From Opitutaceae bacterium (GTDB taxonomy: Bacteria; Verrucomicrobiota; Verrucomicrobiia; Opitutales; Opitutaceae): 64,000 nt of DNA. Under the pieces are notes generated by a model that searched no databases, was not told where the DNA came from, and was given only the letters and a program-made list of their open reading frames with translations. The position numbers and the translations under genes are program-made. Shown in pieces: positions 8,826 to 40,330 of this stretch. The stretch's first letter is position 1; the number at the start of each line of letters is the position of its first letter. The DNA lies in NCBI GenBank assembly GCA_030648295.1, contig JAUSID010000188.1:1-64000 (forward strand), in the 5' to 3' direction.

Positions 8826-8955
8826 GGTTTTGGGTTTTGGGTTTTGGGTTCTGAGTTCTGAGTTCTGAGTTTCGAGTTCTGGCCTCTGGCTTCTGGCTCC
8901 TGGCTTCTGGGTTTGGTTTATCGAACTCAGAACGCAGAACTCAGAACCCAGAACT
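8826..8955. repeat. Word-repeat hairpin array (TTCTGAG / CTCAGAA words)
   Basis: The left part repeats TTTTGGG and TTCTGAG words, passes through CTTCTGGC words, and is followed from about 8932 by the inverse CTCAGAA / CCCAGAA words. The whole can fold into a long imperfect hairpin. It fills most of the gap 8754-8967 between the reductase and the ligase. Closely related words appear at 19774-19919. Confidence 0.8.
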
Positions 8956-8967
8956 GACACCCGAAGG

Positions 8968-10077
8968 TCAGTACACTCCGACCGTTGTGGTTGCGGCAAA
9001 GACCCGGTAGGGACGCACGCCGCTGACGCCGTCCCAAGGAAATTCAGCGCAGGGCGGCTCCAGCTCCGCTTCATCGCGTTCCAGGAAGCGGGGCACAAAG
9101 AACTCCTTGGTCAGCGTGGTAATCATGACGCGCCCGGTCTGGCCGTGCTGGGTGATGGCCTTTTCATTGTCGTCCACATCCACGAGCTGGATGACTGCGC
9201 GGGGCTGGGGCGCGTGATAGATGATCTTGTACTGGTTCTCCGGCCGCAGCGTTCGCGCTCGCGCGAGGCCCATGAGGGTGTTGCCGTAACAGGCGGCCAG
9301 ATAGACCTTGGGTCCCAGCAGTTCCTCGACGGCGAACCGCGCCCACTGGGCGGTCATTTCCGTGCCGCCGCAAAAGATGCCCGTGATGCCGCTCTGCTCG
9401 ATGCTGGAACCCCCGGCCTCGAGCCGCGCAGCGAGCGCGTCCAGCAGTTTCGGCGTGACGAACATGCACTTGATGTCGTGTCCGGCCGAAAGGACGGTCA
9501 TCGCCTGATCGATCACGTGGTCGGAGTAGAGCTTCAGCTCGGCCATCGCCCCCCGCTTGATGAGCTTGACGACCCAGCGCGGGTCGAGGTCGACACAGAA
9601 GCAAATGCCGCCGCGATGCTGGCAGAGGTGCTCGACCGCGAGCCGGAGACGGCGCGGCCCCGAGGGCCCCAGCATGAGCCAGTTGGAACCCTTCGGGAAC
9701 TGGGCATCCGGGAGAGTCTCGGAGAGCATCTCGTAATCGATGCGGAAATCGTCGACGACCACGCGGCTTTTCGGAATTCCAGTCGTGCCGCCGGTCTCGA
9801 ACACGTAGGTGGGCTTGTTCGCGTAGGCCTTGGGCACCCAGCGGCGGACGGGGCCGCCGCGGAGCCACTCGTCCTCGAAGTGGCCGAAGCGCGTGAGATC
9901 GGCGAACGACTTGATCTCCCGGCGCGGATCCCATCCGGCTTTCTTCGCCCATCCGAGCCAGAAGGGAGTGCCGGTGTCCGGGGAGAAATGCCAGTCGACG
10001 ATTTCACGTACGTGAGCGTCGAGTTTTTCGGCGGCGCTCTTGATGGCGTCAGGGGAGACGGAGGCGGTCTGACTCAT
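8968..10077 (-). CDS. AMP-forming acyl-activating enzyme, LuxE-like size
   Basis: A 369-residue protein with the adenylate-binding loop ETGGTTGIPKSR (about 94-105) of ANL-type acyl-activating enzymes. The usual ANL length is 450-550 residues; the length here is close to LuxE acyl-protein synthetases (about 370), and the downstream neighbour is LuxC-like. Later segments GIFCGGTEMT and YLAACYGNT fit the A5-type Y/F-G-x-T/S-E region in altered form. It should activate a carboxylic acid with ATP and pass it to the reductase. It is divergent from the iron alcohol dehydrogenase across a 294-bp intergenic region. Related proteins are sometimes labelled phenazine biosynthesis proteins, which says little about substrate. 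Confidence 0.7.
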   Translation of the reverse strand: MSQTASVSPDAIKSAAEKLDAHVREIVDWHFSPDTGTPFWLGWAKKAGWDPRREIKSFADLTRFGHFEDEWLRGGPVRRWVPKAYANKPTYVFETGGTTGIPKSRVVVDDFRIDYEMLSETLPDAQFPKGSNWLMLGPSGPRRLRLAVEHLCQHRGGICFCVDLDPRWVVKLIKRGAMAELKLYSDHVIDQAMTVLSAGHDIKCMFVTPKLLDALAARLEAGGSSIEQSGITGIFCGGTEMTAQWARFAVEELLGPKVYLAACYGNTLMGLARARTLRPENQYKIIYHAPQPRAVIQLVDVDDNEKAITQHGQTGRVMITTLTKEFFVPRFLERDEAELEPPCAEFPWDGVSGVRPYRVFAATTTVGVY

Positions 10078-10260
10078 GCGTGGGGCTGACTTTGTGGGGT
10101 GGTTGACGGGGATCTGTCTTGCGAAAGGCGAAGACGCAAACCTCCGCCCGCGCCGCCGTCAACGGGCGAGTGGATCAAACTGTTGCGCGCAGGCGATTGA
10201 TTCGTTTCGACAGACGTGTTCACGGGTTTTCTGCGTCATAAGTGGCATCCGGGGTAGGGC

Positions 10261-10299
10261 CCGACAAAAACCCTTGTCCGGATCTGAGGAATTTGTCGG
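10261..10299. promoter_or_regulatory. Inverted repeat in the divergent intergenic region
   Basis: Arms CCGACAAA (10261-10268) and TTTGTCGG (10292-10299), a perfect 8-bp pair 23 bp apart, lie between the divergent ligase and alcohol dehydrogenase genes. It could be an operator shared by both directions. No regulator gene is adjacent, so this is only a candidate. Confidence 0.35.
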
Positions 10300-10371
10300 T
10301 CTGACACGCCCGCGGTGTTCGCGGATTTCGAAATTGCCCGTCACGTTGTCTGCGCGCCCCACAAATTCCTG

Positions 10372-11505
10372 ATGATTGAACCCTTCGTCTCCAAAACTTC
10401 CCCGAAACTCGTTTTTGGCGCCGGGTCGCTGTGCGAGCTGCCGGCGTGTGTTCGTGAGGTAGGGGCGTCGGCCGTGTTTCTCGTCAGCGACACCGGGATC
10501 GTGCGCGCCGGGCACATGGATCGGGCGCGGGAGTATCTCGAAGCCGCCGGCATTGCGGTCGTGCCTTACGATCACTCGCACGAAAACCCGACCGAGGCGG
10601 ACGCCGCGGCATGTTGCGCGATTGCCCGCGAAAAACAGTTCGACGCCATCGTCGCGCTCGGCGGCGGCAGCAGCATGGACACGGCGAAGGCGTGCAATTT
10701 CCTCCTCACGAATGGCGGGGCGATGCGCGATTACCACGGCTACGGCAAGGCGGCCAGGCCGATGCTGCCGTTCATCGCCATACCCACGACCTCAGGAACG
10801 GGCAGCGAGTGCCAGTCGTACGCGCTCGTGAGCCGCGACGACACGCACGAGAAAATGGCGTGCGGCGATCCGAAGGCGCGCGCCCGGATCGCGATCCTCG
10901 ATCCGAATCTCACCGCCACGCAGCCGAAGTCGGTCGCGGTGCAAACCGGGCTCGATGCGGTGGCGCATGCGCTCGAGTCGGCGGTGTCCACCCGCCGGAA
11001 CCCGCTGTCGGCCCTCTATTCCGAGGGGGCGTTTCGGAATCTCTCCCGCGCCATCGGCAACGTGATCGCGGGCCGCGCAACCAGTGACGATCGCGGACAC
11101 ATGCAGCTCGGCGCGGCGCTCGCCGGGCTGGCGATAGAAAACAGCATGCTCGGCGGTGCGCATGCGAGCGCGAATCCGCTCACGGCGCGCCACAACGTGA
11201 TTCACGGGCACGCCGTGGCGCTGATGCTACCGCACGTGATGCGGTTCAATGCGGAGAACACCGGCGCCGCCGCCATTTATGCGGGATATTCCGCCATCCT
11301 GCGGGAGTCCGGGATCACGTCGCTGCCGCTCATCGAGTGGGTCGTCGAATTGGTGGCGCAGAGCGCGCTGCCGCGGGTAAATGGTGGCGTCAGCGATTTA
11401 GCGGCGCTCGCCGCGGACGCGACGAAACAGTGGACCGGCCAGTTCAACCCGCGGCCGTTGCAGGCGGACGATTACATCGCATTGTATCGACGTGCGCTGG
11501 GTTAA
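10372..11505 (+). CDS. Iron-containing alcohol dehydrogenase
   Basis: A 377-residue group III (Fe-type) dehydrogenase. The start is placed at the ATG opening MIEPFVSKTSPKLVFGAGS, which begins the conserved family N-terminus; the frame extends 19 codons further up without support. It has the NAD(P)-binding GGGSSMDTAK motif and the metal-site region with HALES and HNVIHGHAVALMLPHV. These enzymes interconvert alcohols and aldehydes or ketones. Facing a ligase and an acyl reductase across a divergent promoter, it could finish a reduction acid to aldehyde to alcohol, which is an inference from context. Confidence 0.88.
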   Translation: MIEPFVSKTSPKLVFGAGSLCELPACVREVGASAVFLVSDTGIVRAGHMDRAREYLEAAGIAVVPYDHSHENPTEADAAACCAIAREKQFDAIVALGGGSSMDTAKACNFLLTNGGAMRDYHGYGKAARPMLPFIAIPTTSGTGSECQSYALVSRDDTHEKMACGDPKARARIAILDPNLTATQPKSVAVQTGLDAVAHALESAVSTRRNPLSALYSEGAFRNLSRAIGNVIAGRATSDDRGHMQLGAALAGLAIENSMLGGAHASANPLTARHNVIHGHAVALMLPHVMRFNAENTGAAAIYAGYSAILRESGITSLPLIEWVVELVAQSALPRVNGGVSDLAALAADATKQWTGQFNPRPLQADDYIALYRRALG

Positions 11506-11506
11506 C

Positions 11507-12775
11507 ATGGCTTCGGATTGGAGTGGATCGAACCTGGGAGCGCGGGCGTCCCGCCCGCAATTGCCTTGGCGTCACTCGCGCCCACACGTCCGATTTGCGC
11601 AAAACCTTCTTGCCGTAGTTTGCGCCGCCGCCCTCACCGGCTGCGGCGATCGCGGTGCGACCCACGGCGGAAACTCCACCACGGCGAAAACGGCAAACGC
11701 TCCCGCCATCACCTGGCCGATGACGCGCGGCGGACCGGCGCTCAACGGCAGCGTGCCGACCAAGGTGCCGCTGAATCCGAAGACCGCGTGGACGTTCGCT
11801 TCGTCCGGCCCCATCACCGCGGAGGCCGCACTCGCGGGTGGCCGCGTCTACATTGGCACCGGCAAGGGCACACTCCACTGCCTCGCCGCTGACACCGGAC
11901 GTGAACTCTGGCACTTCGACACGAAGGACGCGATCACCGCCGGGCCCGCCGTCGCCGGCACCACCGTGTTCGTCGCCTCCAACGATGGATCGCTGTATGC
12001 GTTAAAGGTGGAAAATGGCGCACCGGCCTGGACGTTCTCCACGGACGAGAAAATCAGTTCCGGTCCGACGGTGATCAAAAACCCGGGCGGACCCGGCGAC
12101 TGGGTTTTGCTGAACGGCTACGACGGTACCACGCGCGTGCTCGATGCGGCCGACGGCAAACTTGTGTGGTCCTACAAAACCGACGACTTCATCAACGGCG
12201 CGCCGGCGATCGTCGATGGCCGCTACGTGGTCTTCGGCGGATGCGATGCGCAACTGCACGTGGTCAACCTGAAGGACGGCACGCCGGTGCACAAAATTCC
12301 CACCAGTGCGTACATCCCCTCCTCGATCGCGACCTACGGCTCGATGGCGTTTTGCGGCAACTACGCGAACCAGACCGTCGCATTCGACGTCGCGGGCGGA
12401 AAGGTCGCCTGGGTTTACGAGGATCGTCCGCTGCCATTTTTCAGCTCGCCGGCGGTCAACGAGCGGCTGGTCCTGATCGGATCGCGCGACAAGCACCTGC
12501 ACGCGATCGACCGCAAGTCGGGCCAGAGCGCATGGAAGTTCCGCACCGGCGGCCGCGTGGAGGGTTCGCCCATCGTGTTCGAGGACGCCGTGGTATTCGG
12601 CTCCAGTGATGGCCGGCTGTATGCGGCGGGCCTCGTGGCGGGGGCGGAACTCTGGCAACTCGATCTCGGCGAACCGCTGGTGGCGGCGCCGGCGTATGGC
12701 GACCGGCAGATTGTGATTGGCGGCGAAAAGGGAACGGTGTTTGCCATCCGGGCGGAGACTGCATCCATTCGTTAG
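11507..12775 (+). CDS. PQQ-type beta-propeller lipoprotein (BamB-like)
   Basis: A 422-residue protein with a lipoprotein signal (LLAVVCAAALTGC, lipobox LTGC), followed by about seven repeats of the PQQ/WD-like blade pattern (for example GRVYIGTGKGTLHCLAADTG and GSLYALKVENG). It is probably anchored in a membrane facing the periplasm. The ATG follows the dehydrogenase stop by 1 bp. The n-region before the lipobox is unusually long (about 45 residues to the Cys) because a family-A repeat (11533-11560) lies in frame within it. A true start inside or after the repeat cannot be excluded. Confidence 0.8.
   Translation: MASDWSGSNLGARASRPQLPWRHSRPHVRFAQNLLAVVCAAALTGCGDRGATHGGNSTTAKTANAPAITWPMTRGGPALNGSVPTKVPLNPKTAWTFASSGPITAEAALAGGRVYIGTGKGTLHCLAADTGRELWHFDTKDAITAGPAVAGTTVFVASNDGSLYALKVENGAPAWTFSTDEKISSGPTVIKNPGGPGDWVLLNGYDGTTRVLDAADGKLVWSYKTDDFINGAPAIVDGRYVVFGGCDAQLHVVNLKDGTPVHKIPTSAYIPSSIATYGSMAFCGNYANQTVAFDVAGGKVAWVYEDRPLPFFSSPAVNERLVLIGSRDKHLHAIDRKSGQSAWKFRTGGRVEGSPIVFEDAVVFGSSDGRLYAAGLVAGAELWQLDLGEPLVAAPAYGDRQIVIGGEKGTVFAIRAETASIR
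11533..11560. repeat. Family A dispersed palindrome (in-frame, lipoprotein N-terminus)
   Basis: Copy of CTGGGAGCGCGGGCGTCCCG followed by CCCGCAA; the arms GCGGGCG and CGCCCGC pair. It encodes GARASRPQ in the n-region of the lipoprotein signal. Similar copies lie at 16227-16254, 28671-28696, 43325-43383 (two degenerate units) and 62534-62560. Confidence 0.85.
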
Positions 12776-12822
12776 CCAATACGTCCTGCCGGCGGCCCCC
12801 ACCCGCCTCAATTCCCACGTTA

Positions 12823-14157
12823 ATGAACCACGACCCAACCACGCCTGCCGTACCCGCGAAAAGCGACACGGTGGCAGGCAACTACTTCATATCCAACTAC
12901 CCCCCGTTTTCGTTCTGGTCCGAGGATCAGAAGATCGAGGTAGAGGTTGCGCTCAATTCCGAGCCGGCGCCGGACACGAAGCTCGGGGTCTATCACCACA
13001 TCCCGTTTTGCCGGAAGCGGTGCCATTTCTGCTATTTCCGCGTCTACACGGACAAGAACGCGAAGGAGATTCAGACTTATCTCGACGCGACCATCGCCGA
13101 GCTGAAGTCCATCGCGGAGCGGCCGCTGCTCCAAGGTCGGAAGCCGCATTTCATTTATTTCGGCGGCGGCACGCCGTCGTATCTTTCGGCGAAGCAACTC
13201 CACGAACTCACCGACCGGTTGAAAGCCATTCTGCCGTGGGATCAGGCCGAAGAAGTCGCCTTTGAAGGTGAGCCCGGCACGCTCAACGCTGCAAAACTCG
13301 CCGCAATCAAGCAGGTGGGCGTTACGCGCCTTAGCCTCGGCATCGAGCATTTCGACGACCATGTCCTCGAAATCAACGGCCGCGCCCACCGTTCCGGGGA
13401 AGTCTATGCCGCCTACGAGCGGGCCCGCGCCGAGAATTTTTCCCAGATCAACATCGACCTCATCGCCGGCATGGTCGAGGAGACCGAGGCCTTGTGGCAG
13501 CGCAACATCGAGGAGACGATCAAGCTGCGGCCCGACAGCGTGACCATCTACCAGATGGAGGTGCCCTACAACACGACCATCTACAAAGAGATGAAGGCGG
13601 AGGGAAAACTCGTCGCGCCCGTGGCCGACTGGATGACGAAACGCCGGTGGGTGAAGGAGGCTTTCGCCGCGCTGGAGAGCGCGGGCTACACCATCGGCAG
13701 CGGCTACACCGCGGTGCTCAATCCAAAACGCACGAAGTTCGTCTATCGTGACGAGCTCTGGAGCGGAGCGGACTTGATCGGGCTGGGCGTAGCCTCGTTC
13801 TCCCACGCAGCCGGCGTGCATTACCAGAATCTCACGGAAATCGACCCCTACCTCGCCGTGCTCAAGGCCGGAGAGCTCCCGATCAAGCGCGCGTTCCGCA
13901 CCTCGCCCGAGGAGCGGATGATCCGCGAATTCATCCTCCAGATGAAACTGGGCCACGTGGAGTTCGCGTACTTCATCGACAAATTCGGCGTCGATATCTC
14001 GCAGCGTTTCGCCGGCCAGCTCGATCACCTCGCCGCCGAGGGACTGCTGACCGTATCCGATACGGGCGTACGGTTGTCGCGCGACGGTCTGCTCTGCGTC
14101 GACACGCTGCTGCACGAATTTTTTCTCCAGCAGCACCGCACGTCGCAAATCGTGTAA
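12823..14157 (+). CDS. Radical SAM protein, HemW/coproporphyrinogen-oxidase-like
   Basis: A 444-residue radical SAM enzyme with the cluster motif CRKRCHFCYF (Cys63, Cys67, Cys70), the CxxxCxxC of the family with the aromatic residue after the last Cys. GGGTPSYL follows at about 114-121, and a C-terminal region resembles the HemN_C-type domain. It is closer to HemW-like proteins than to true HemN, since the N-terminal trip wire expected for HemN is not evident. It sits 47 bp after the beta-propeller lipoprotein and 7 bp before the chorismate-lyase-like gene, so it probably belongs to the same operon. The role could be haem handling or a radical step in the pathway. Confidence 0.75.
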   Translation: MNHDPTTPAVPAKSDTVAGNYFISNYPPFSFWSEDQKIEVEVALNSEPAPDTKLGVYHHIPFCRKRCHFCYFRVYTDKNAKEIQTYLDATIAELKSIAERPLLQGRKPHFIYFGGGTPSYLSAKQLHELTDRLKAILPWDQAEEVAFEGEPGTLNAAKLAAIKQVGVTRLSLGIEHFDDHVLEINGRAHRSGEVYAAYERARAENFSQINIDLIAGMVEETEALWQRNIEETIKLRPDSVTIYQMEVPYNTTIYKEMKAEGKLVAPVADWMTKRRWVKEAFAALESAGYTIGSGYTAVLNPKRTKFVYRDELWSGADLIGLGVASFSHAAGVHYQNLTEIDPYLAVLKAGELPIKRAFRTSPEERMIREFILQMKLGHVEFAYFIDKFGVDISQRFAGQLDHLAAEGLLTVSDTGVRLSRDGLLCVDTLLHEFFLQQHRTSQIV

Positions 14158-14164
14158 GCCCGCC

Positions 14165-14770
14165 GTGCCCGATCATGACACCGACGCCCGGCCCGCGCCC
14201 CACCAACCTGCCATGCCCGCCATGCCCGAAGTAATGGCTCGCGGCGTGCCGGAGCCGCTTTGGAAATTTGCCCTTGAATCGTGCGGCATCCCGTCCGGCG
14301 CGGTGCTCATGCTGCCGGGAAACAAGCTGCCGGAGCCGGCCCGCCAGCTGCTCGTGCACCATCGGGACATGACGTCGACGCTCGCGACCCATCACGGCAG
14401 CGCGCTGCGGGTGGAAATCCTTCACCAGCATGACGTCGGTGAGGTCTACCTGCGCGAAGTGTTTCTCCGCACGATCGCCGGCGACCGCATCGTCGAGTAC
14501 GGAATCATCGCCATAGTCCTGGAGCAGTTCAGCGCGCCACAGCAGGCGGCGATTCGCGCCGGCCGGACACCGTTGGGTGGGGTGTTGCACCGGTTTAAAA
14601 TTCCCTTCGAAAGCAGTCCGATTGGTTTCTTTTCCGTCGCGGCGGCGCGGCTGCCGGAGACGCGGCGCCTGGGATTCAATGGCTCGCCGTGCCATGGCCG
14701 GTTCAACCGGATCTCAAAGCCGACGGGTGAGCCGCTCGCGTGGATCATGGAAATTTTGCCGCCGGCATGA
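14165..14770 (+). CDS. Chorismate pyruvate-lyase-like protein (DUF98/PF01947-like)
   Basis: A 201-residue protein. The segments LLVHHRDMTSTL, EVYLREVFL, VEYGIIAIVLEQF and PLGGVLHRFKI follow the pattern I know from the DUF98/chorismate lyase-2 family, whose mycobacterial member converts chorismate to 4-hydroxybenzoate and pyruvate. The GTG start at 14165 is 7 bp after the radical SAM stop; an internal ATG at 14213 would remove the low-complexity leader. With an acyl-activating enzyme, a thioesterase and a glycosyltransferase nearby, a hydroxybenzoate-derived product is conceivable. The family call is from memory of motifs and is moderately sure. Confidence 0.6.
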   Translation: MPDHDTDARPAPHQPAMPAMPEVMARGVPEPLWKFALESCGIPSGAVLMLPGNKLPEPARQLLVHHRDMTSTLATHHGSALRVEILHQHDVGEVYLREVFLRTIAGDRIVEYGIIAIVLEQFSAPQQAAIRAGRTPLGGVLHRFKIPFESSPIGFFSVAAARLPETRRLGFNGSPCHGRFNRISKPTGEPLAWIMEILPPA

Positions 14771-14784
14771 ATGTTGGCCGCATG

Positions 14785-14837
14785 CGCGATCGCCCCCGGT
14801 CGCAATGCCGCCGCGACCGGGGGCGGTCGCGCTCCCG
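14785..14837. repeat. Family B dispersed palindrome
   Basis: Two arms of the GCGACCGCCCCCGGTCGC type face each other around AATGCCGC, giving a long GC hairpin directly before the glycosyltransferase start. The same sequence as at 17-42. Confidence 0.8.
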
Positions 14838-14849
14838 CCAAACCCTCCC

Positions 14850-16148
14850 GTGAAGATCATTTTTCTCACGCCCGGCACGGGCAGCTATTATTGCGGCGCC
14901 TGCATGCGCGACAACGCGCTGGCACGGGAGCTGTATCGGAGCGGCCATGATGTGACGCTCGCACCGATGTATCTGCCGATGATGCTCGACGACGAGACGC
15001 CAGCGGAGGTCCGCCGGGCGCCGATTTTCTTCGGCGGGATCAATGTCTACCTGCAGCAGAAGGTCGCGCTGTTCCGCAAGACCCCCGCCCTGATCGACCG
15101 GCTGTTCAACCGCGATGGACTGCTCCGCTGGGCCGCGCGCCACAGCCACATGACGTCGGCCCGCGAGCACGGCGAAATGACGCTGGAGATGCTGCGGGTT
15201 GAAAACAGCCGTTTCCGCAAGGAGTGGGACAAGCTGCTCGACTGGCTCGCGCACGAAACGCCCGACCTCATCTGCCTCTCGAACGCGCTGCTCGCCGGTT
15301 TTGCGGCCGAGTTGAAGCGCCAGCTGCACGCGCCGGTCATCACGTTCTTTCAAGGCGAGGACTCGTTTCTCGATGGGTTGCCGGAACCGTATCGAACCCA
15401 GTGCTGGACCGCGCTGGGGCAGCGGCTCGCGGACTCGGACCTGCTGCTCGCGCCGAGCCGCTTCTATGCCGAGCTGATGCGCGAACGGCTCGGGTTGCCG
15501 CCGGGCTCAATCGACGTCGTTCCCAATGGCATCCGGCTCGACGATTATGCTCCGGCCGGGGCGCGACCGTCGTCGCCTGTGATTGGATACCTCGCCCGGA
15601 TGAACCGCGACAAGGGGCTGGAGGTACTGGTGGACGCGTTCATTCAGATTGCCGGTGAAGTGCGGGATGTCCGGTTGAAGATTGGCGGGGCCGCGACCGC
15701 GGGTGACGAGCCGTTCGTGGCCGCAATGAAGCAGCGGATTGCGGCGGCGGGACTCGCCGACCGGGTGGAGTGGGCGCCGAACCTGACGCGTGAAGGGAAG
15801 ATCGCGTTCTTGCGCAGCCTGACACTTTTTTCCGTGCCGGCCGTGTACGCCGAGGCATTTGGCCTTTACCTCATCGAAGCGATGGCGTGCGGCGTGCCGG
15901 TCGTGCAGCCCGACGCGTCCGCGTTTCCCGAGATCATCGAACTCACGGGCGGCGGCCTCTGCGTCGAACCACGCAACCCCTCCGCGCTGGCGGCCGGCTG
16001 GCGGCAGTTGCTCGGCGACGAAACCAGGCGGACGGCGCTCGGCCGGGCCGCACGATTGGGCGTTGAAAAATATTTCGGGGCCAAGACGATGTGCGCCCAG
16101 TTCCTGGCCGCGTGCCGGGTGACACCCCATGCCCAAAAGATATCCTAA
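14850..16148 (+). CDS. Glycosyltransferase (GT4/GT1-like fold B)
   Basis: A 432-residue protein with the GT-B layout. The N-terminal half begins KIIFLTPGTGSYYCGACMRDN. The C-terminal half has IGYLARMNRDKGLEVLVDAF, a nucleotide-sugar side region, and the EAFGLYLIEAMACGVPVVQPD acceptor/donor motif (E-x7-E) typical of GT4 enzymes. The start is the GTG at 14850, immediately after the family-B hairpin; upstream extension only translates repeat sequence. It should transfer a sugar from an activated donor in the cytoplasm or at the inner membrane. It closes the run of genes starting with the iron alcohol dehydrogenase. Confidence 0.85.
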   Translation: MKIIFLTPGTGSYYCGACMRDNALARELYRSGHDVTLAPMYLPMMLDDETPAEVRRAPIFFGGINVYLQQKVALFRKTPALIDRLFNRDGLLRWAARHSHMTSAREHGEMTLEMLRVENSRFRKEWDKLLDWLAHETPDLICLSNALLAGFAAELKRQLHAPVITFFQGEDSFLDGLPEPYRTQCWTALGQRLADSDLLLAPSRFYAELMRERLGLPPGSIDVVPNGIRLDDYAPAGARPSSPVIGYLARMNRDKGLEVLVDAFIQIAGEVRDVRLKIGGAATAGDEPFVAAMKQRIAAAGLADRVEWAPNLTREGKIAFLRSLTLFSVPAVYAEAFGLYLIEAMACGVPVVQPDASAFPEIIELTGGGLCVEPRNPSALAAGWRQLLGDETRRTALGRAARLGVEKYFGAKTMCAQFLAACRVTPHAQKIS

Positions 16149-16226
16149 CATTTTTCCTGCTTGTAATCGTAGCAGCAGACCCAAGGAGGCTGGCCGATCG
16201 ATGAATTATTCGCCCAACAATCGCGG

Positions 16227-16254
16227 CCTGGGAGCGCGGGCGTCTCGCCCGCAA
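16227..16254. repeat. Family A dispersed palindrome
   Basis: Variant with GTCTCG in the loop. It sits inside a 29-codon frame (16201-16290) that has a good ribosome site AAGGAGG at 16183-16189 but no recognisable product. This may be the start of a gene destroyed by the repeat. Confidence 0.8.
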
Positions 16255-19709: not shown

Positions 19710-19773
19710 CCGGTTCAACGTACGACCAACATGCTGTTTCGCCGCGGCGATAGGTCGAATGCTCGTCCGAACT

Positions 19774-19919
19774 CGGTTTTGAGTTCTGGGTTTTGGGTTC
19801 TGAGTTGGAAGGAACCTCCTAACTCAAAACTCAGCGTCCCATTCTCGATTGTCGTTCAGCGTTCTGGATTACGGTTGGTTCGCAACCCAGAACTCAAAAC
19901 CCAGAACCCAGAACCAACT
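19774..19919. repeat. Word-repeat hairpin array (GGTTTTGAGTTCTGGG / AACCCAGAACTC words)
   Basis: Left arm from 19774 with TTTTGAGTTCTGGG words, a short inverse segment near 19821, and a right arm 19883-19919 of CCCAGAACTCAAAA words. Shares its words with the array at 8826-8955, 11 kb away. It separates the ATPase from its permease and supplies the false 5' extension of the permease frame. Confidence 0.8.
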
Positions 19920-19947
19920 GCGCTGTGAACCCAAAACCGATAGCTTG

Positions 19948-23247: not shown

Positions 23248-23392
23248 CTCATTTCGGATTTCGGAAACCGGATTTTTCATTTCGGAAACCGGATACCGGA
23301 TTCCGGAAACAGTCGATCCGCCCGGTCTCTGGTCTCTGGTCTCGGGTCTCTGGTCTCAAGTCTCCGGTATCCGGTATCCGGTATCCGATATT
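23248..23392. repeat. Word-repeat array (CGGAAACCGGAT, GGTCTCT, CCGGTATC words)
   Basis: Three blocks follow each other: TTTCGGAAACCGGAT units (23250-23312), GGTCTCT units (about 23323-23363), and CCGGTATC units (about 23364-23390). The first and third blocks are partly inverse to each other, so a long hairpin is possible. It lies between the permease stop and a truncated toxin gene whose end is 39 bp away. Confidence 0.8.
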
Positions 23393-23430
23393 CCAGCCCG
23401 CGCGGCAACTGCCTACTGTGCTGTCGGTTT

Positions 23431-25516: not shown

Positions 25517-25783
25517 CACCGACCACGGATCGAACCGGATCAAGGCGGAAACCAACCGCGAATTGACGCGAATGGACGCGAATCGAGCGGCGGTGAGAGG
25601 CGGCCGCCGCCGCGAATTCAACGGGCACACACAAGTGCAATCGTCCCCCCCAATGAATTCCGCCATGATGCGCGTGAATTGGCGTCCATTCGCGGCTGCA
25701 ACGGGTGGTTCGGGGTCAATCGCGCGAAAAACCGCACGCACCAGACCCGATCCGTGCCGATCCGTGACATCCGTGGTTGCCTG
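25517..25783. repeat. Nested inverted word repeat (CACGGAT outer, ACGCGAATGG inner)
   Basis: Outer arms: ACCACGGATCGAACCGGATC (from 25521) against GATCCGTGCCGATCCGTGAC and ATCCGTGGTT (to about 25779). Inner arms: CCGCGAATTGACGCGAATGG (from 25556) against TGAATTGGCGTCCATTCGCGG (about 25675-25695). The centre holds a GC-rich stretch. The whole gap 25415-25878 between the MFS gene and the propeller gene is occupied by this structure and shows no gene. Confidence 0.7.
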
Positions 25784-28670: not shown

Positions 28671-28779
28671 CAGGGTGCGCGGGCGTCCCGCCCGCACGGT
28701 GGCGAAGAAAGTTTGGTGGGAGCGCGTACGCCCCCGGTCGCACCGAGTTCATTGCGCCCGAGGGCGGTCGCCCTCCCAG
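28671..28779. repeat. Adjacent family A and family B palindromes
   Basis: Family A copy at 28671-28696 (GCGCGGGCGTCCCGCCCGCA) is followed at 28717-28779 by a family-B unit with facing arms around ACCGAGTTCATT. The two families therefore occur side by side in the gap 28638-28867, which has no gene. Confidence 0.8.
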
Positions 28780-33204: not shown

Positions 33205-33217
33205 ACCAACGAGTACC

Positions 33218-33451: not shown

Positions 33452-33498
33452 GCAAGGGCGCGTGGTTCGAGGGCGCGGCGGAAAATCGGAGCTGGCTA

Positions 33499-33516
33499 TT
33501 TCGCAGAAGTGCGAAA
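33499..33516. promoter_or_regulatory. ArsR-type operator before the second arsR
   Basis: Inverted repeat TTTCGCA-GAAG-TGCGAAA, i.e. TTCGC-N6-GCGAA, ending 10 bp before the ATG at 33527. The same TTCGC-N6-GCGAA spacing recurs before the permease gene at 33910-33925. Confidence 0.7.
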
Positions 33517-33526
33517 CACTTCCCGC

Positions 33527-33862: not shown

Positions 33863-33909
33863 GAAATCTCCCGTCATGAAGCCGAGCCCGGCAAATCCCG
33901 CCCAACTAT

Positions 33910-33925
33910 TTCGCTCTTTCGCGAA
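33910..33925. promoter_or_regulatory. Second TTCGC-N6-GCGAA operator, before the permease
   Basis: TTCGC (33910-33914), 6-bp spacer, GCGAA (33921-33925), preceded by CTATT as in the operator at 33499-33516. It lies 10 bp before the permease ATG. Two matching sites suggest one regulator for both genes. Confidence 0.65.
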
Positions 33926-33935
33926 GTAAGGGACC

Positions 33936-35294
33936 ATGAACAGCCGCAAAGAACTCCCGATCCTCGCCCTGATGGCCACGGTCTTTGCCGGCTTTTATTT
34001 CCTGCCCCTGGGTTCCCCGCGCTTCGATGACGCGGTACAGGCGTCACTGGCGCTGACCAAGTGGTATGCGCGCGAGCACGTGATCCTCTGCCTGCTGCCG
34101 GCATTCTGGATTGCGGGCGCGATCGGCGCGTTCGTGTCGCAGCAGTCGGTCATGCGCTACCTGGGCGCCAACGCTCCGCGGGTGACGAGTTATGGCGTGG
34201 CGTCGGTTTCGGGCACGATCCTCGCCGTGTGCTCGTGCACCGTGCTTCCGCTCTTTTCGGGCATCTATCGCATGGGAGCGGGCCTCGGACCGGCGACCGC
34301 GTTTCTCTACTCCGGCCCGGCGATCAATACCCTCGCGATCATCCTTACGGCGAAAGTGCTCGGGCTCCAACTCGGCGTGGCGCGGGCCGTGGGCGCAGTA
34401 ACATTCAGCGTGGTGATCGGCATGGCGATGCACGTGATCTTTCGCCACGAAGAAAAAGCCAAGGCGGCCAGGATCGCGGAGCTGCCCGTGCCACCCGCGA
34501 TGCGCTCGTTGTGGCAGACGGCGGTGTTTTTCGGCCTGATGGTGGCGGTGCTGATCTTCGCCAACTGGAGTCGCGCCGACGAGGAGGCTGGGTTCTTCGC
34601 CACCGTGTTTGCAGCGAAGTGGTGGCTGACCTCGATCTGCGCGGCATTCCTCGGCCTGATCTTGTGGCGCTGGTTTGCGCTGTCGGCCGTCCGCCTCGCC
34701 GTCACGGCGGGGGTGGTGGCGCTGTCCGCGCTATTCATCCCCTCTCAACCAACGCTCGCAGTTCTCCTCGGAGTCGCCGGGCTCGCCTGGGCGACGGCCG
34801 GTCAGCCCGGTGAAGCGGGCGAGTGGTTTGTCCAGTCTTGGGCTAACGCGAAACAGATCTTTCCGCTGTTGATCGCCGGCGTGGTGGTCGCGGGATTGCT
34901 GCTCGGGCGCCCCGGACACGAGGGGCTGATTCCGAACGAATGGATCGCTCGATCCGTCGGCGGAAATTCGCTTGCCGCCAATGCCTTCTCGGCTGTCGCC
35001 GGCGCTCTCATGTATTTCGCGACGCTGACCGAGGTGCCAATCCTTCAGGGACTCCTCGGCAGCGGCATGGGCCAGGGGCCGGCGCTGGCGCTGCTGCTCG
35101 CCGGCCCGGCCTTGAGCCTGCCGAGCATGATTGTGATCAACTCAGTCATTGGTCCGAAGAAAACGGCCGCCTACGTCGCGCTCGTCGTTGTGCTCTCGAC
35201 CCTGGTCGGTTGGGCCTACGGCGCGATCGCGCCCAACCCGGACCGCGGATCGCTTCCGGCGGAGCAGGTGCCGGCCGGGCATCCCCTCGCATGA
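33936..35294 (+). CDS. PF03773-type permease (ArsP-like / SO_0444-like efflux)
   Basis: A 452-residue permease with about 10 membrane helices. The segment VSGTILAVCSCTVLPLFSGIYRMGAGLGPATAFLYSGPAINTLAI is the first repeat signature of the PF03773 permease family, which includes the ArsP organoarsenical exporter and SO_0444-type metal exporters; CSCT stands where ArsP-like proteins have their Cys pair. The second repeat is MYFATLTEVPILQGLLGSGMGQGPALALLLAGPALSLPSMIV. As the only large transporter in the ars cluster it may be the membrane partner of ArsA. The operator just upstream ties it to ArsR2. Confidence 0.8.
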   Translation: MNSRKELPILALMATVFAGFYFLPLGSPRFDDAVQASLALTKWYAREHVILCLLPAFWIAGAIGAFVSQQSVMRYLGANAPRVTSYGVASVSGTILAVCSCTVLPLFSGIYRMGAGLGPATAFLYSGPAINTLAIILTAKVLGLQLGVARAVGAVTFSVVIGMAMHVIFRHEEKAKAARIAELPVPPAMRSLWQTAVFFGLMVAVLIFANWSRADEEAGFFATVFAAKWWLTSICAAFLGLILWRWFALSAVRLAVTAGVVALSALFIPSQPTLAVLLGVAGLAWATAGQPGEAGEWFVQSWANAKQIFPLLIAGVVVAGLLLGRPGHEGLIPNEWIARSVGGNSLAANAFSAVAGALMYFATLTEVPILQGLLGSGMGQGPALALLLAGPALSLPSMIVINSVIGPKKTAAYVALVVVLSTLVGWAYGAIAPNPDRGSLPAEQVPAGHPLA

Positions 35295-35337
35295 ACCGCG
35301 ACCGATCAAAACGCGCAAACGAACGCAGGAAATCTCC

Positions 35338-35571
35338 ATGAAAACGATCCAGATCCTGGGCATCGGCTGCCCGAAATGCCACAAGCTCGCCGATGTCGCC
35401 GAACAAGCGGCGAAGTCGCTCGGCCTCGAATACTCGATCGAGAAGGTCACCGAGATCGCCCGCTTCGCCGAGTTCGGCGTGATGTTCACTCCCGCGCTCG
35501 CCGTGGACGGGCAGGTGAAAGTCGCCGGCCGGGTGCCCTCCGTCGAAGACATGAAGAAAATGCTCGTCTGA
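35338..35571 (+). CDS. Small thioredoxin-fold protein (redox-active disulfide protein 2 type)
   Basis: A 77-residue protein. It has IQILGIGCPKCHKL with the CPKC redox motif (Cys11 and Cys14), and the cis-Pro region VMFTPALAVDGQVKVAGRVPSVEDMKKML. This is the short thioredoxin-like family often found beside PF03773 permeases. The ATG at 35338 lies 43 bp after the permease stop. It probably handles the redox state of a metalloid or of the permease thiols in the cytoplasm. Confidence 0.85.
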   Translation: MKTIQILGIGCPKCHKLADVAEQAAKSLGLEYSIEKVTEIARFAEFGVMFTPALAVDGQVKVAGRVPSVEDMKKMLV

Positions 35572-35581
35572 CTTTACGCCC

Positions 35582-36850
35582 ATGAATGCCACCGCCCTGA
35601 AATGCCCGAGTATGAAACCACTTCGAGCTTTGCGCACTCTTGCACTCTCGCTCGCCTGCGGAGCGTTCCTTGCGGTTGGACTCCGCGCCGCCGCGCTCTC
35701 GGCGCCCGCAGAATCCACGCCTGCCCTCCCCCGGCTCGTCGACCTCGGAGCCGACAAATGCATTCCGTGTAAAATGATGGCGCCGATTCTGGCGGAGCTG
35801 AAAAAGGAGCACGCCGGCCGGCTCGACGTCGTCTTCATCGACGTGTGGAAGAACAGCGACGCCGGGAAACAATATGGCATCCGGGTGATCCCGACGCAGA
35901 TCTTCTACGACGCATCCGGTAAGGAGCGCTTCCGGCACGAGGGATTTATCTCGAAGCAAGACATCGTGAAGAAGTGGAAGGAACTCGGCGTCGATCTCGC
36001 GCCGAAAAAATCGGCTGGCATCGTCCGTGAAAAGCCCGTCGCCCCCGACACCCGCCCTCGCGATCGGGTGTGTTCACTTTGTGACGGCGACGTCGACGCG
36101 AGGACGAAGACCATGGTGAGGGGCCAGAGCGAGCAGCGCACCCTGTGCTCGCCGCACTGTTACTTCATTTACCAGTCGAGCCTCGTTGGCGCCGATGCGC
36201 AGGCTGAAGCGGGCAAGGTCAGCGTGACCGATTGGACGAACGGCCGGCTCATCGCTGCGACCACGGCAACCTACCTCTACGGCATGGCCGCCAATGGTCG
36301 GCCCACGATCCGGGCGTATGCCGACAAGGGTGCCGCCATCAGGGATCAGGCCGCCAGCCCCGGCAATGTGGTGACGTGGGACGTGCTGCGCGCGAAGGAA
36401 CTCACGACCCGCTGCGGCTTCTGCGACCGCGCCGTTTACCCGGAAGACGCCTGCCCCGTGAAGGCAGGGTCGATGCACACCTACGGCTGCTGCACCCACT
36501 GCGCGATGGGCGTCGCGGCGCGGCTGCAAAAGGACATCGAAGTCGAGGCTGGCGACGGACTCACGGGCGAAGTCATTCGCGTGAAGACGCTGAACGGCAG
36601 TGTCGCCGCGCTCGAACCCGCGTCAGCCGTGGCGTGGTTTGGCCAGATGAGAGGTCCCGATGGCAGCTGGGCCTCCGCCGGTTGTTTCAAACAAGCCTTC
36701 TTCGCCAACGTGACCAACCTCCAGAAGTGGCTCGACGCCCGTCCGACCATGACCGGCCGGCAGATTACCATCGACCAGGCGCTGGCGGACAAAATGAAGC
36801 TGAGCCCCGAACAGATCGCCAAAGCGTGCAAGCTCGGGGAATGCAAATGA
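35582..36850 (+). CDS. Exported thioredoxin-domain protein with NosL-like Cys-rich region
   Basis: A 422-residue protein with a signal peptide (a second ATG at 35612 gives MKPLRALRTLALSLACGAFL). A thioredoxin domain with CIPC active site follows (VDLGADKCIPCKMMAPIL, about residues 52-69, numbering from 35582). The C-terminal half has two Cys-rich units, CSLCDGDVDA and CGFCDRAVYPEDACPVKAG with CCTHCAMGVA, resembling NosL-like metal-binding regions. It should work in the periplasm and receive electrons from the CcdA protein encoded next. Neighbour order permease - small thioredoxin - thioredoxin - CcdA points to a thiol relay. Confidence 0.75.
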   Translation: MNATALKCPSMKPLRALRTLALSLACGAFLAVGLRAAALSAPAESTPALPRLVDLGADKCIPCKMMAPILAELKKEHAGRLDVVFIDVWKNSDAGKQYGIRVIPTQIFYDASGKERFRHEGFISKQDIVKKWKELGVDLAPKKSAGIVREKPVAPDTRPRDRVCSLCDGDVDARTKTMVRGQSEQRTLCSPHCYFIYQSSLVGADAQAEAGKVSVTDWTNGRLIAATTATYLYGMAANGRPTIRAYADKGAAIRDQAASPGNVVTWDVLRAKELTTRCGFCDRAVYPEDACPVKAGSMHTYGCCTHCAMGVAARLQKDIEVEAGDGLTGEVIRVKTLNGSVAALEPASAVAWFGQMRGPDGSWASAGCFKQAFFANVTNLQKWLDARPTMTGRQITIDQALADKMKLSPEQIAKACKLGECK

Positions 36851-36882
36851 AAGGAACCGCACGATGAGATGCGGGCTCCGCC

Positions 36883-37581
36883 ATGGAAACCCTCTTTGTC
36901 ACGTTATCGGAAGCAATGTCCGGGGCACCGCTCGTCGCGCTGGCGGCCGCATTTGCATGGGGCGTACTGAGCATCGTGCTCAGCCCGTGTCACCTCGCGA
37001 GCATCCCGCTGATTGTCGGTTTCCTCCAGGGGGGCGGCGCCGTGACGCCGCGTCGCGCGGCGGGACTGTCGACCCTGTTCGCATTGGGAATCCTGGTCTC
37101 GATTGCCCTCATTGGCGCGGCGACGGCGGCCGCCGGACGGATGCTGGGTGATCTCGGACCGTGGGGAAACTACGCGGTGGCGGCGGTGTTCTTTGTATTC
37201 GGACTCCACCTACTCGACCTGCTGCCAATGCCGGAGGGCTGGCGGCCGGCTCCGCATCAACCCCGACGGGGTGCGCGGGGTGCGTTTCTCTTCGGGCTCG
37301 TCTTCGGCGTGGCGCTCGGCCCGTGCACGTTCGGATTCATGGCGCCGGTTCTGGGGATTACATTTGGCATGGCCGGGACGGCACCCGCATTCGCGCTGGG
37401 CGTGCTCGCGCTTTTTGCCGCCGGCCACTGTGCCGTAATCGGGCTGGCGGGCGTCTCGAGCACATGGGTACAGCGCTGGCTCGACTGGCAAAACGACAAC
37501 CCCGGCGCCAAGTGGCTGCGCCGAACTTGTGGGGCGCTGGTGGTCGCCGCCGGCGGGTGGCTGATCGTCAGCGCACCGTGA
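36883..37581 (+). CDS. ccdA: CcdA-type thiol:disulfide transmembrane carrier
   Basis: A 232-residue protein with six helices. The first helix carries SIVLSPCHLASIPLIVGFLQ with the Cys-Pro-type CcdA signature (SPCHLASIPL) and the fourth carries GVALGPCTFGFMAPVLG, the second redox Cys of the CcdA/DsbD family. It moves reducing power from the cytoplasm to periplasmic partners. It follows the exported thioredoxin gene by 32 bp and closes the metalloid block. Confidence 0.9.
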   Translation: METLFVTLSEAMSGAPLVALAAAFAWGVLSIVLSPCHLASIPLIVGFLQGGGAVTPRRAAGLSTLFALGILVSIALIGAATAAAGRMLGDLGPWGNYAVAAVFFVFGLHLLDLLPMPEGWRPAPHQPRRGARGAFLFGLVFGVALGPCTFGFMAPVLGITFGMAGTAPAFALGVLALFAAGHCAVIGLAGVSSTWVQRWLDWQNDNPGAKWLRRTCGALVVAAGGWLIVSAP

Positions 37582-37590
37582 GCCGGCGGA

Positions 37591-37983
37591 TTACTCGCCC
37601 ATCGTCCGCCGCCGGTTCGCCTTGATGCCGGCGCGGTGTTTTTTGGCCTGAATCATCCGGACCTTCTGGCCGCGGCTCTTCTGCCGTTTTTGCCGCAGCT
37701 GTTTTTGGACTTCGTCCTGGTGCGCCGCCGCCGCGGCGCGCCGCCGCTCTTCGAGCTTCGCGCAGAGTTCGGCCCAAGCCAGCTCCCGATTCTCCGCCTG
37801 CGAGCGTTCACGCTGGCAACGCACCTCGATTCCAGTCGGCCCGTGTCGGAGCCACACCGTCGACGAAGTCTTGTTGATCTTCTGCCCGCCCGGCCCGGAG
37901 CCGCGCACAAACCGCTCCTCCACGTCGGCCGCACGGATCCCCGCAGCCGCCAGCCGTTCAGCGATTTGGGTTGGAGCGCTCAT
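37591..37983 (-). CDS. Release-factor-like peptidyl-tRNA hydrolase (GGQ protein)
   Basis: A 130-residue protein with the catalytic motif [18 protein letters not shown] (GGQ at about 33-35), the following [21 protein letters not shown] helix, and a long basic tail ([28 protein letters not shown]) expected to enter the ribosomal mRNA channel. This is the arrangement of short rescue release factors such as ArfB/YaeJ and mtRF-R. It releases peptide from stalled ribosomes. It is convergent with ccdA, with 9 bp between stop codons, and has a word-repeat hairpin upstream. Confidence 0.85.
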
Positions 37984-37989
37984 GGGGAT

Positions 37990-38167
37990 GAAGGACCAAG
38001 GGACAAAAGGACTGTCCTGATGCCACGATAAGTGAACATTTTACTTTCATGTTGTCCCATAGTCTCGTGGTCTCGTTCCAATTCGCTCCATCGCCAGCGT
38101 CTTGTGTCTCGTAGTGAATTAGTCCCTTAGTCTTTTGGTCCCTTAGTCCTTTAGTCCTTGTAGTCTC
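37990..38167. repeat. Word-repeat hairpin array (GGACCAAGGGACAAAAGG / CCCTTAGTCCTTT words)
   Basis: Left arm 37990-38015 (AAGGACCAAGGGACAAAAGG), right arm about 38119-38165 with TTAGTCCCTTAGTCTTTTGG-type words in inverse orientation. Middle part has GTCTCGTGGTCTCG words. It occupies the divergent gap between the release-factor-like gene and the MoxR gene, so it lies in both promoters. Confidence 0.8.
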
Positions 38168-38171
38168 CCTC

Positions 38172-39134
<963 letters not shown>

Positions 39135-39150
39135 TGCGCCGCGCTGCGCG

Positions 39151-39285
39151 GAAGCTCCAAGCTCCAAGATCCAAGCTCCAATGAAGCTCCAATCAGCAAA
39201 CACCCAATCGCGTGAGTCAGGCGGCTTTGGCCTTCTTGCCGAGTTTGTGTTTCTCTGGAGCTTGGATGTTGGAGCTTGGAGCTTT
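39151..39285. repeat. Word-repeat hairpin array (GCTCCAA / TTGGAGC words)
   Basis: Left arm 39151-39192 with AAGCTCCAAGCTCCAAGATC words, right arm about 39255-39285 with TGGAGCTTGGATGTTGGAGC words. Fills the gap between the MoxR and DUF58 genes. The next gap (40212-40330) uses the same words, so adjacent gaps in one operon share a word set. Confidence 0.85.
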
Positions 39286-39313
39286 AGCGAGAGCTGAACG
39301 GTCGTCCGCGCTA

Positions 39314-40207
39314 ATGGCAGTCGAACCCACAACCTCTCCCACCACCGCCTCCCCGCTCGCGCTGCTTCGTCAGCTCGAATGGCGGGTGCGGCATGCGGTG
39401 GAAAACGTGCTAAGTGGCGAATACCGCTCCGCATTTCGCGGCCGGGGCATGGAGTTCGACCAGGTGGTGAAGTACGAGTTCGGCGACGACGTGCGAGACA
39501 TCGACTGGAACGTCACCGCCCGGCTCGGCGAGCCTTACCGGAAGAAATTCGTGGAGGAGCGCGAGGTCACTCTGCTGCTGGTGTTCGAGGATTCGCCCAC
39601 GCTCCATTTTGGATCCGGCGAGCAGTCGAAACGCGAGGCGCTGCTCGAGCTCGCCGGACTGGTCATGCTGCTCGGCGCGGTGAACCGCGACCGGGTGGGG
39701 TTCGTTCACGCCGGTCCGGCGGGAAATCTTTTTCGCGAACCGGTGCGCGGCCGCGGGCAGATCATGCATTCGGCCGCGACGCTTCTGGCCCGGCCGGCAC
39801 CTTCGCCGACCGACACGCCGCCGGAAATCCCCTGGCGGTTTCTCGCGCGCGCCGCGCCGAAACACAGCGTGTTGATCTGGCTCGGTGATTTTCCGCCGCG
39901 TACGCATCCGGAGGGCTGGCCGGTCCTCCAACGGCGGTATCAGACCATGGGATTTCGCGTCGACGATCCGTGGGAACGGTTCCTGCCATCCGACGAGACG
40001 TTCGCGGCTTACGACCCCATGGCGGGCCGGCTCGTCACGCTCGAGGGCAGCGCGGCGGAACGCGCGGCGCATGCGGCGTGGCGGCGGGAGCGCGAGGAAG
40101 CGTGGACGGCCTTGTTTCCGGACGCATTGAGCCGGCTTACGGTCGGCACGGACGAGAACCGACTCGATGCGCTGGTGCGCTTTTTCCACGCGCGAATGGC
40201 GCGCTGA
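39314..40207 (+). CDS. DUF58-domain protein
   Basis: A 297-residue cytoplasmic protein. The start at 39314 (MAVEPTTS) is chosen since the longer frame upstream reads through the word array. LSGEYRSAFRGRGMEFDQVVKYEFGDDVRDIDWNVTAR is the DUF58 signature (the GxGxEFxxxRxYxxGDDxRxIDWxxxAR pattern), followed by a VWA-like region (VTLLLVFEDSPTLHFG) in which the usual DxSxS is altered to EDSPT. It belongs to the MoxR-VWA system and may act as its adaptor. Confidence 0.92.
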   Translation: MAVEPTTSPTTASPLALLRQLEWRVRHAVENVLSGEYRSAFRGRGMEFDQVVKYEFGDDVRDIDWNVTARLGEPYRKKFVEEREVTLLLVFEDSPTLHFGSGEQSKREALLELAGLVMLLGAVNRDRVGFVHAGPAGNLFREPVRGRGQIMHSAATLLARPAPSPTDTPPEIPWRFLARAAPKHSVLIWLGDFPPRTHPEGWPVLQRRYQTMGFRVDDPWERFLPSDETFAAYDPMAGRLVTLEGSAAERAAHAAWRREREEAWTALFPDALSRLTVGTDENRLDALVRFFHARMAR

Positions 40208-40211
40208 CGCA

Positions 40212-40330
40212 AAGCTCCGGGCGCCAAGATCCAACCTCGCAGAATTTCAAATGACCAAGGTTCAGCCTCCATCGTTTTGCGAGTTTGAGAATTGGAGCTT
40301 CTCTGGATCCTGGATGTTGGAGCCTGGAGT
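40212..40330. repeat. Word-repeat hairpin array (GATCCAAC, TTGGAGC words)
   Basis: Left arm near 40214-40235 (CTCCGGGCGCCAAGATCCAA), right arm 40291-40330 (TTGGAGCTTCTCTGGATCCT and TTGGAGCCTGGAG). Same word set as 39151-39285. It lies directly before the first VWA gene and produces its false 5' extension. Confidence 0.8.

What the first reader, a model, noticed from the sequence alone, without database searches (positions are those of the whole stretch)
8826..40330. A family of intergenic word-repeat hairpins, each gap with its own 7-9 bp word
At 8826-8955, 19774-19919, 23248-23392, 37990-38167, 39151-39285 and 40212-40330 the gap is filled by imperfect tandem units of a short word followed in most cases by the same word inverted. 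Words differ: TTCTGAG, CCGGTATC/GGTCTCT, TTAGTCC, GCTCCAA. Arrays within one operon (39.1 and 40.2 kb) share words; the 8.8 and 19.8 kb arrays also share theirs. The common architecture with changing sequence is not explained by insertion sequences or CRISPR. Cyanobacterial heptanucleotide repeats (STRR) are a distant analogy. Possible roles: RNA hairpins between genes of an operon, protein binding, or a slippage-driven element.
Basis: seen in the sequence. Interest (0 to 1): 0.8.

Follow-up and report, generated by a model that had tools for sequence, protein, structure and literature searches.

The report
Word-built hairpin repeats in Opitutaceae genomes
Gaps between genes, and some spots inside genes, of these bacteria are filled by short DNA hairpins built from repeated seven-letter words; the layout recurs between species while the words change, and what makes them is unknown.

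Summary
The six gaps carry imperfect tandem words of 7 nt (one of 8 nt), mostly followed by their inverse; a seventh lies inside a gene at 42385-42474. Period-7 arrays exceed chance (53 in 864 kb of this genome, 93 in 1.27 Mb of relatives; Markov controls 0). Nearest named relatives: Opitutaceae. Words are not private to a gap: AAGCTCC recurs at about 30 places here and in 3 of 27 genomes of the genus, with a shared layout (four CCAANNN heptads, register break, inner heptads, loop, mirror). Pattern hits per genome run from 0 to 775 within the genus. In sister species the same gap can hold an unrelated hairpin. At one coding site 20 of 73 orthologs carry heptad arrays of several words, the two sides matching better within than across species (2 of 20,000 shuffles). 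Tests for an RNA role were negative. No tag was found, and no transposase or target duplication in the places examined. Best reading: MITE/REP-like hairpins, probably mobile, whose words drift by slippage and mutation. Closest precedent: inverted GGGAATC heptamer arrays of Xanthomonas.

The parts
8826..8965 (.). Heptad hairpin, words TTCTGAG/TTTTGGG/TTCTGGC; arms 8830-8871 and 8924-8965
   Evidence: word family 281 hits in the genome
19768..19922 (.). Heptad hairpin, same word family (GGTTCTG/GGTTTTG); arms 19768-19807 and 19883-19922
23248..23399 (.). Compound heptad hairpin: CGGAAAC/GGTATCC arms 23279-23310 and 23360-23391 around a GGTCTCT array
37989..38167 (.). 8-nt word hairpin (GGGACCAA / TTAGTCCC), ends 4 nt before the MoxR-type ATPase start codon at 38172
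39147..39289 (.). AAGCTCC-family hairpin between the MoxR-type gene (38172-39134) and DUF58 (39314-40207): four CCAANNN heptads, ATGAA/GAGAA break, inner heptads, loop, mirror
40208..40335 (.). Degenerate AAGCTCC-family hairpin, begins right after the DUF58 stop codon, ends shortly before the VWA gene start at 40343
42385..42474 (+). In-frame heptad hairpin (GGAAACC ... GGTATCC) inside a second VWA gene (41359-43239), encoding a hydrophilic stretch and the end of a hydrophobic segment

Best explanation
These are short (about 100-200 bp) interspersed hairpin repeats, probably non-autonomous mobile elements of the MITE/REP kind, whose two arms are each built from tandem words of 6-10 nt, most often 7. 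Shown: the word classes that I followed are families dispersed through the genome, and the AAGCTCC class is patchy among congeners; its copies share a layout with a register-breaking marker; sister species hold different hairpins in the same gap. Inferred: copies spread by transposition or a similar copying process, settle in spacers and permissive coding segments (linkers, hydrophobic segments), and their words then drift by slippage of whole units (7-nt loops are, from general knowledge, too large for MutS) plus point mutation. Families thus keep a grammar (7-nt spacing, a GA/TC dinucleotide in nearly every word, inverted arms) but not the sequence. This reading needs no conserved function.
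For: Period 7 is the commonest period, with none at 5 and few at 10-11. Inverted partner (at least 14/18) in 34 of 72 intergenic arrays against 6.5% and 4.2% in two controls. AAGCTCC element: 73 matches in G000, 71 in G007, 8 in G026, none in the other 24 genus genomes, with shared layout. Three copies of one element with like unit order and loop in L035. Genus counts from 0 to 775. Replacement and nesting in orthologous gaps of sister pairs, read by eye: L060/L062, L102/L110, L091/L100, L050/L063. Same coding site, several words, in 20 of 73 orthologs, the two sides coupled. Units change by single letters along arrays. MutS present in the four richest genomes.
Against: Mobility was not seen. 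The five genes examined between or beside neighbouring AAGCTCC copies are metabolic or ankyrin genes and a DUF4440 gene, not transposases. No clear target duplication in 36 copies, whose ends are only approximate. Y1_Tnp count correlates with array count in the genus (rho 0.58, p 0.0016), but not clearly once genome size is removed (0.23, p 0.25), and the richest genome has one match. Arms of one AAGCTCC copy are no more alike than arms of different copies (20.75 against 21.00 of 28), odd if each hairpin were copied and kept as a unit. In the clade L080-L110 at the coding site the outer units look vertically inherited (by eye), pointing to drift in place.
Confidence: 0.55

Rival explanations
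1. Local origin only: heptad arrays arise and turn over in place by replication slippage, and the inverted arm is made by template switching at a hairpin; families look dispersed because slippage favours certain words.
For: Unit length 7, words changing stepwise along arrays, exact mirror arms in a few hairpins (36 of 38 and 37 of 38 nt in L035, 30 of 31 in L095); drift in place at the coding site; 7-mer slippage has been proposed for bacteria at large (passages of PMC4692102 and PMC4679880).
Against: Shared register-break marker or loop among dispersed copies; a family present in 3 of 27 genus genomes and not found in 24; most of 82 hairpins show no mirrored unit order beyond shuffles (5 of 82 at p 0.05 or less, median p 0.45; hairpins were chosen by complementarity, which biases the test upwards).
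Confidence: 0.27
2. Functional RNA hairpins between operon genes (attenuation, transcript stabilisation or termination).
For: Located in spacers, strong folding in the window (z -3.1 to -7.9); in the own sample 43 of 60 array-bearing gaps are tandem, though tandem gaps are 277 of 408.
Against: On the sense strand, stems of tandem gaps have fewer G:U than A:C mismatches (18 against 37 in 43 stems); no covariation among AAGCTCC copies; no significant depletion from divergent gaps (Fisher p 0.21 own, 0.84 relatives) and no clear convergent excess (10 of 56 gaps own, 3 of 55 relatives); found inside coding sequence; absent or replaced in sisters.
Confidence: 0.08
3. Binding array for a protein that reads a core repeated every 7 nt (CCAA in the AAGCTCC family, more generally YCVRA), with the rest of each word free.
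For: In 272 units of 68 AAGCTCC-family arms, CC and AA stand at 0.85-0.92 and the triplet at 0.60-0.70 (extraction was anchored on CCA, so partly built in); GA/TC in 97% of 71 distinct words against 71% for permuted letters.
Against: Some words, such as CATTGGT, do not fit YCVRA; arms occur in both polarities (24 against 8, 13 ties of 45); 6 of 27 genus genomes have no match to the pattern.
Confidence: 0.08
4. Chance or assembly artefact.
For: Low-complexity DNA is prone to assembly error.
Against: Markov controls 0 at lag 7; the same pattern in 40 of 80 loci, each from its own species record, among them a record not labelled as a metagenome bin, Ereboglobus sp. PH5-10, L105.
Confidence: 0.02

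Closest known systems
Inverted GGGAATC heptamer arrays of Xanthomonas and GGGGA(C/T)T arrays of Nostoc (PMC4692102; sections 10 and 16 and passages read)
   Same: Seven-nt units, imperfect, 186 and 183 arrays in two genomes, 89-93% intergenic, 70 and 75 inverted pairs, same gaps vary in length and sequence between two species
   Different: One G-rich word and a quadruplex focus; here many word families per genome, words of 6-10 nt, a hairpin layout with a register break in one family, and several words at one coding site
TAACTGA heptamer repeats of Beggiatoaceae, Cyanobacteria and Bacteroidetes (PMC4679880; abstract and passages seen)
   Same: Seven-nt direct repeats, intergenic, patchy phylogenetic spread
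Cyanobacterial STRR heptanucleotide repeats (recalled; three Calothrix heptanucleotides are mentioned in a passage of PMC4692102)
   Same: Several 7-nt words in one genome
   Different: Not compared by sequence here; I saw no description of paired inverted arms
GTAG/CGTC REPs and RAYTs (PMC3733652; abstract and passages seen; Opitutus terrae is named there as highly enriched in GTAG repeats)
   Same: Small interspersed hairpins, in gaps and sometimes inside genes, also in Verrucomicrobia
   Different: Palindromes of 20-40 bp with a tetranucleotide tag; the word hairpins as a set lack the tag
MITEs and intragenic small mobile repeats (PMC10969869, PMC2229807: search listing with start of abstract only)
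   Same: Small non-autonomous inverted-repeat elements, some in coding sequence
   Different: Fixed terminal repeats and target duplications (recalled) were not found here

Membership tests
Heptameric SSR arrays (Xanthomonas/Nostoc type) | Tandem units of 7 nt, mostly intergenic, above chance | tested here: met
   53 lag-7 arrays in 864 kb, 45 of them not mostly in called genes, Markov 0
Heptameric SSR arrays (Xanthomonas/Nostoc type) | One predominant G-rich word able to form quadruplexes | tested here: not met
   71 distinct words in own sample plus relatives; words such as AAGCTCC or AATCGAA lack G-runs; folding into quadruplexes not tested
GTAG/CGTC REP (RAYT-mobilised) | GTAG or CGTC at the foot of the stem | tested here: not met
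   GTAG at 6 of 86 word hairpins (5 of the 45 with period 7), CGTC at 2 of 86 (1 of 45); random places 4.5% and 18.4%; other hairpins 40 and 27 of 225
GTAG/CGTC REP (RAYT-mobilised) | Associated Y1 tyrosine transposase | tested here: inconclusive
   Raw rho 0.58 (p 0.0016), with size removed 0.23 (p 0.25); G015 has 775 hits and one Y1_Tnp match
MITE | Interspersed copies with inverted repeats | tested here: met
   AAGCTCC family at about 30 places, some as single arms, with mirrored arms in the copies read
MITE | Target-site duplication | tested here: inconclusive
   Direct repeats in 14-nt flanks of 36 copies: 4 nt 14, 5 nt 6, 6 nt 3, 7 nt 1, against 15, 5, 0, 0 with one shuffle; element ends approximate
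MITE | A transposase whose element carries the same ends | tested here: inconclusive
   None among six proteins beside neighbouring AAGCTCC copies; no genome-wide search was made
Cyanobacterial STRR | The named STRR words and their setting | not tested
   No cyanobacterial genome was compared
Known RNA family | Match to a described Rfam family | tested here: not met
   0 matches at gathering score in the window

The most novel reading that the evidence does not exclude
A class of interspersed DNA element with no sequence of its own: its identity is a grammar (inverted arms of tandem 6-10-nt words, 7 preferred, a GA/TC in nearly every word, a register break), and the word can change in both arms together at a fixed site, even inside a gene, while the element persists.
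Probability: 0.3. Interest if true: 0.85.

Novelty: new variant of a known kind. Interest (0 to 1): 0.62.

Why it matters
Repeat finders look for shared sequence; elements that keep a layout while changing letters would be missed or filed as simple repeats. Here word arrays sit in 60 of 408 measured spacers of the own sample, are written into proteins, and vary from no hits to hundreds within a genus. That makes the old question of why heptamer repeats are over-represented in bacteria testable by comparing rich and poor sister genomes.

Tried and rejected
RNA role: G:U against A:C, covariation and gene-orientation tests gave no support. Loss of mismatch repair: MutS is present in the four array-rich genomes. 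Loss of SbcCD: SbcD passes its cut-off in 2 of 27 genus genomes, both poor in arrays; four more, rich ones among them, have weak matches, and most poor genomes lack it too, so not informative. Y1/RAYT as driver: raw correlation, not clear after genome size. GTAG/CGTC tag: not a feature. Target duplication and autonomous partner: none seen in the places examined. Mirrored unit order as a sign of template switching: rare, biased test. Unit order shared between arrays of the same word at different loci: 22% of 218 pairs at p 0.05 or less, mean z 1.24, pairs not independent. Arrays abutting gene ends: 46% against 19% for single tracts, but close to random in the own genome when whole hairpins are merged (0.28 against 0.22 at stops, 0.26 against 0.21 at starts), with an excess at starts in relatives (0.52 against 0.27), so not claimed. 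Rfam: nothing. Papers by literal sequence: two unrelated. Other paper searches.
Full report
What is there. The window lies in a 9.12 Mb, 294-contig genome. The named records closest to its DUF58 protein are Opitutaceae/Opitutae, most of them metagenome bins; the best 80 of 571 relatives were kept, highest identity 90%. The six gaps were read base by base. Five hold 7-nt words and one, at 38.0 kb, 8-nt words (the 40.2 kb array is weak and passes only). Inverted arms of 32-46 nt at 83-88% complementarity were found in four. The 38.0 kb hairpin needs a looser scan, and the 40.2 kb one is recognised by similarity to 39.1 kb. A seventh, in-frame, hairpin lies inside a VWA gene.

More than chance. 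In the window a Markov-3 control gives 0.0 lag-7 arrays per 64 kb. In 864 kb of this genome (40 stretches of 20 kb plus the window, 9.5% of it) there are 53 arrays at lag 7, 22 at 8, 19 at 9, 17 at 6, one each at 10 and 11 and none at 5; one Markov-3 copy gives 0 at lags 6-11 and 2 at lag 5. About half of those at lags 6 and 9 lie in called genes (8 of 17, 9 of 19), but only 8 of 53 at lag 7. In 1.273 Mb of relatives lag 7 gives 93 against 0, in 40 of 80 loci; lags 6, 9 and 15 are also high there (53, 29, 47) and were not checked against genes; lags 5 and 11 give none, 8 gives 12 and 10 gives 6. Of 74 intergenic arrays of periods 6-9, 72 could be tested: 34 have an inverted partner of at least 14/18 in the 150-nt flanks or within the array, against 6.5% with swapped and 4.2% with random flanks.

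Words. From 145 segments I get 71 distinct heptamer necklaces of 1172 possible. A GA/TC dinucleotide occurs in 97%, against 71% of letter-permuted words and 68% of intergenic 7-mers; the fitted position profile beats all 60 permuted sets. Words are related within genomes, so these are not independent draws. Along long arrays the word changes stepwise (e.g. L180:19061, L142:4475). Of 311 hairpins with 24-nt arms in relatives plus own sample, 86 have periodic arms: 45 of period 7, 11 each of 10 and 6, 9 of 8, 8 of 9, two others. A printed sample of 40 of the other 225 shows REP-like and other palindromes, some probably in genes.

Families, not private words. The pattern GTTCTGAGTTCTGAGTTCTG with up to 3 mismatches gives 132+149 hits in this genome against 1+1 for the reversed pattern. 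The 39.1 kb element matches 73 stretches here (about 30 places by my count of a cut listing, some single arms), 71 in G007, 8 in G026 and none in the other 24 genomes of the genus. Copies read share a layout: four CCAANNN heptads, a GAGAA/ATGAA-type register break, inner heptads, a variable loop, and the mirror. In 272 units CC and AA stand at 0.85-0.92 and the triplet at 0.60-0.70 (extraction was anchored on CCA). L035 holds three copies of another element with like unit order and loop.

Spread. A degenerate heptad pattern, chosen from 22 cores on the own sample and relatives, is found in 110 of 194 genomes sampled from the phylum, but the reversed control also hits many, since other words match it. 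Within the genus hits run from 0 to 775 (registers counted apart): G015 775, G000 622, G003 558, G001 519, against 4 in the 7.9 Mb G008 and 5 in the 10.3 Mb G025; 6 of 27 have none.

Turnover at one place. The MoxR-DUF58 and DUF58-VWA gaps of the 80 loci hold hairpins of different words or none. Among sister pairs on the DUF58 tree, with flanking DNA about 80-95% identical, I read by eye: L060 has a 6-nt-word hairpin where L062 has another type plus a heptad array; L102 has a CCAAANN hairpin where L110 has a GTAG REP; L100 has one word hairpin nested in another where L091 has only the outer type; L063 has a REP inside a heptad loop where L050 has only part of it. In DUF58 itself a variable linker carries heptad-coded insertions in 14 of 81 sequences by my threshold, needing 9 changes on the tree among the labelled rows. 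In the second VWA gene 20 of 73 orthologs, window included, have a lag-7 stretch of at least 16/21 at the same site, against 0 at lags 5, 8, 10 and 11 and 4 each at 6 and 9. Words vary (CCGGTTT in several species, also CTCCCTT, CATTGGT, GCCTCCG, CTCAGCT, CTCCGTC and others). Not all have both arms. The two sides complement each other better within a species than across species: 13.45 against 12.07 of 18, 2 of 20,000 shuffles; a six-species clade 14.83 against 13.27, 179 of 20,000; 40 orthologs without arrays 12.05 against 11.85, 1,833 of 20,000. Shared ancestry was not modelled. In that clade the outer units look inherited and the inner ones changed (by eye).

How it may work. Dispersal, patchiness, nesting and replacement argue for copies that move. 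The 7-nt spacing, stepwise words and drift in place argue for slippage and mutation afterwards; unit loops of 7 nt escape MutS (general knowledge), which is present in the four richest genomes. Mobility itself is inferred: I saw no new insertion, no clear target duplication and no transposase beside the copies examined. Among 28 non-redundant AAGCTCC copies the arms of one copy are no more alike than arms of different copies, 20.75 against 21.00 of 28 (37 looser rows gave 20.30 against 20.50). So within this family the hairpin is not kept by pairing within a copy; the shared word suffices. An RNA role is disfavoured: 18 G:U against 37 A:C mismatches on the sense strand in 43 stems of tandem gaps, while other hairpins give 75 against 73, and no significant orientation bias.

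Comparison with print. PMC4692102 (sections on Xanthomonas repeats and discussion read) describes 186 and 183 GGGAATC heptamer arrays with 70 and 75 inverted pairs, 89-93% intergenic, under-represented between divergent genes, role unknown; it cites the idea that 7 nt reflects the DNA segment held by the polymerase. PMC4679880 (abstract and passages) describes TAACTGA repeats. PMC3733652 (abstract and passages) names Opitutus terrae as rich in GTAG repeats. My searches listed no paper that I recognised as describing word-diverse heptad hairpins in Verrucomicrobia; the library holds open-licence papers only and I opened three.

Noticed in passing
window 25556-25695: Hairpin with 10-nt words (CCGCGAATTGACGCGAATGGACGCGAAT ... 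ATTCGCGG); like ones (AACCGCGAATGAACGCGAAT, AACCACGGAT) occur in several Opitutae loci, and two gaps of this genome, L155 and L146, share 202 nt at 85% around one.
   Followed up: partly
window 28717-28778: Non-periodic REP-like palindrome TGGGAGCGCG...CGCCCTCCCA.
   Followed up: no
window 49371-49435: Six-nt word array (GTGAGA/GAGGGA) at a gene end; in L050 and L052 six-nt words of the TTTCTC/GTTCTC kind appear to encode a signal peptide (by eye).
   Followed up: partly
L097 and L103, DUF58 linker: Sister species about 92-96% identical in flanking DNA share heptad ends, but in L103 the middle of the linker is replaced by a REP-like palindrome.
   Followed up: no
genus of G000: SbcD, the palindrome-cleaving nuclease subunit, passes its cut-off in only 2 of 27 genomes.
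   Followed up: no
L143:10242, L150:4215-4396, L152:17019, L163:15891: Nine-nt word arrays GGAAGACGC/GTCTTCCGC, paired as a hairpin in L150.
   Followed up: no
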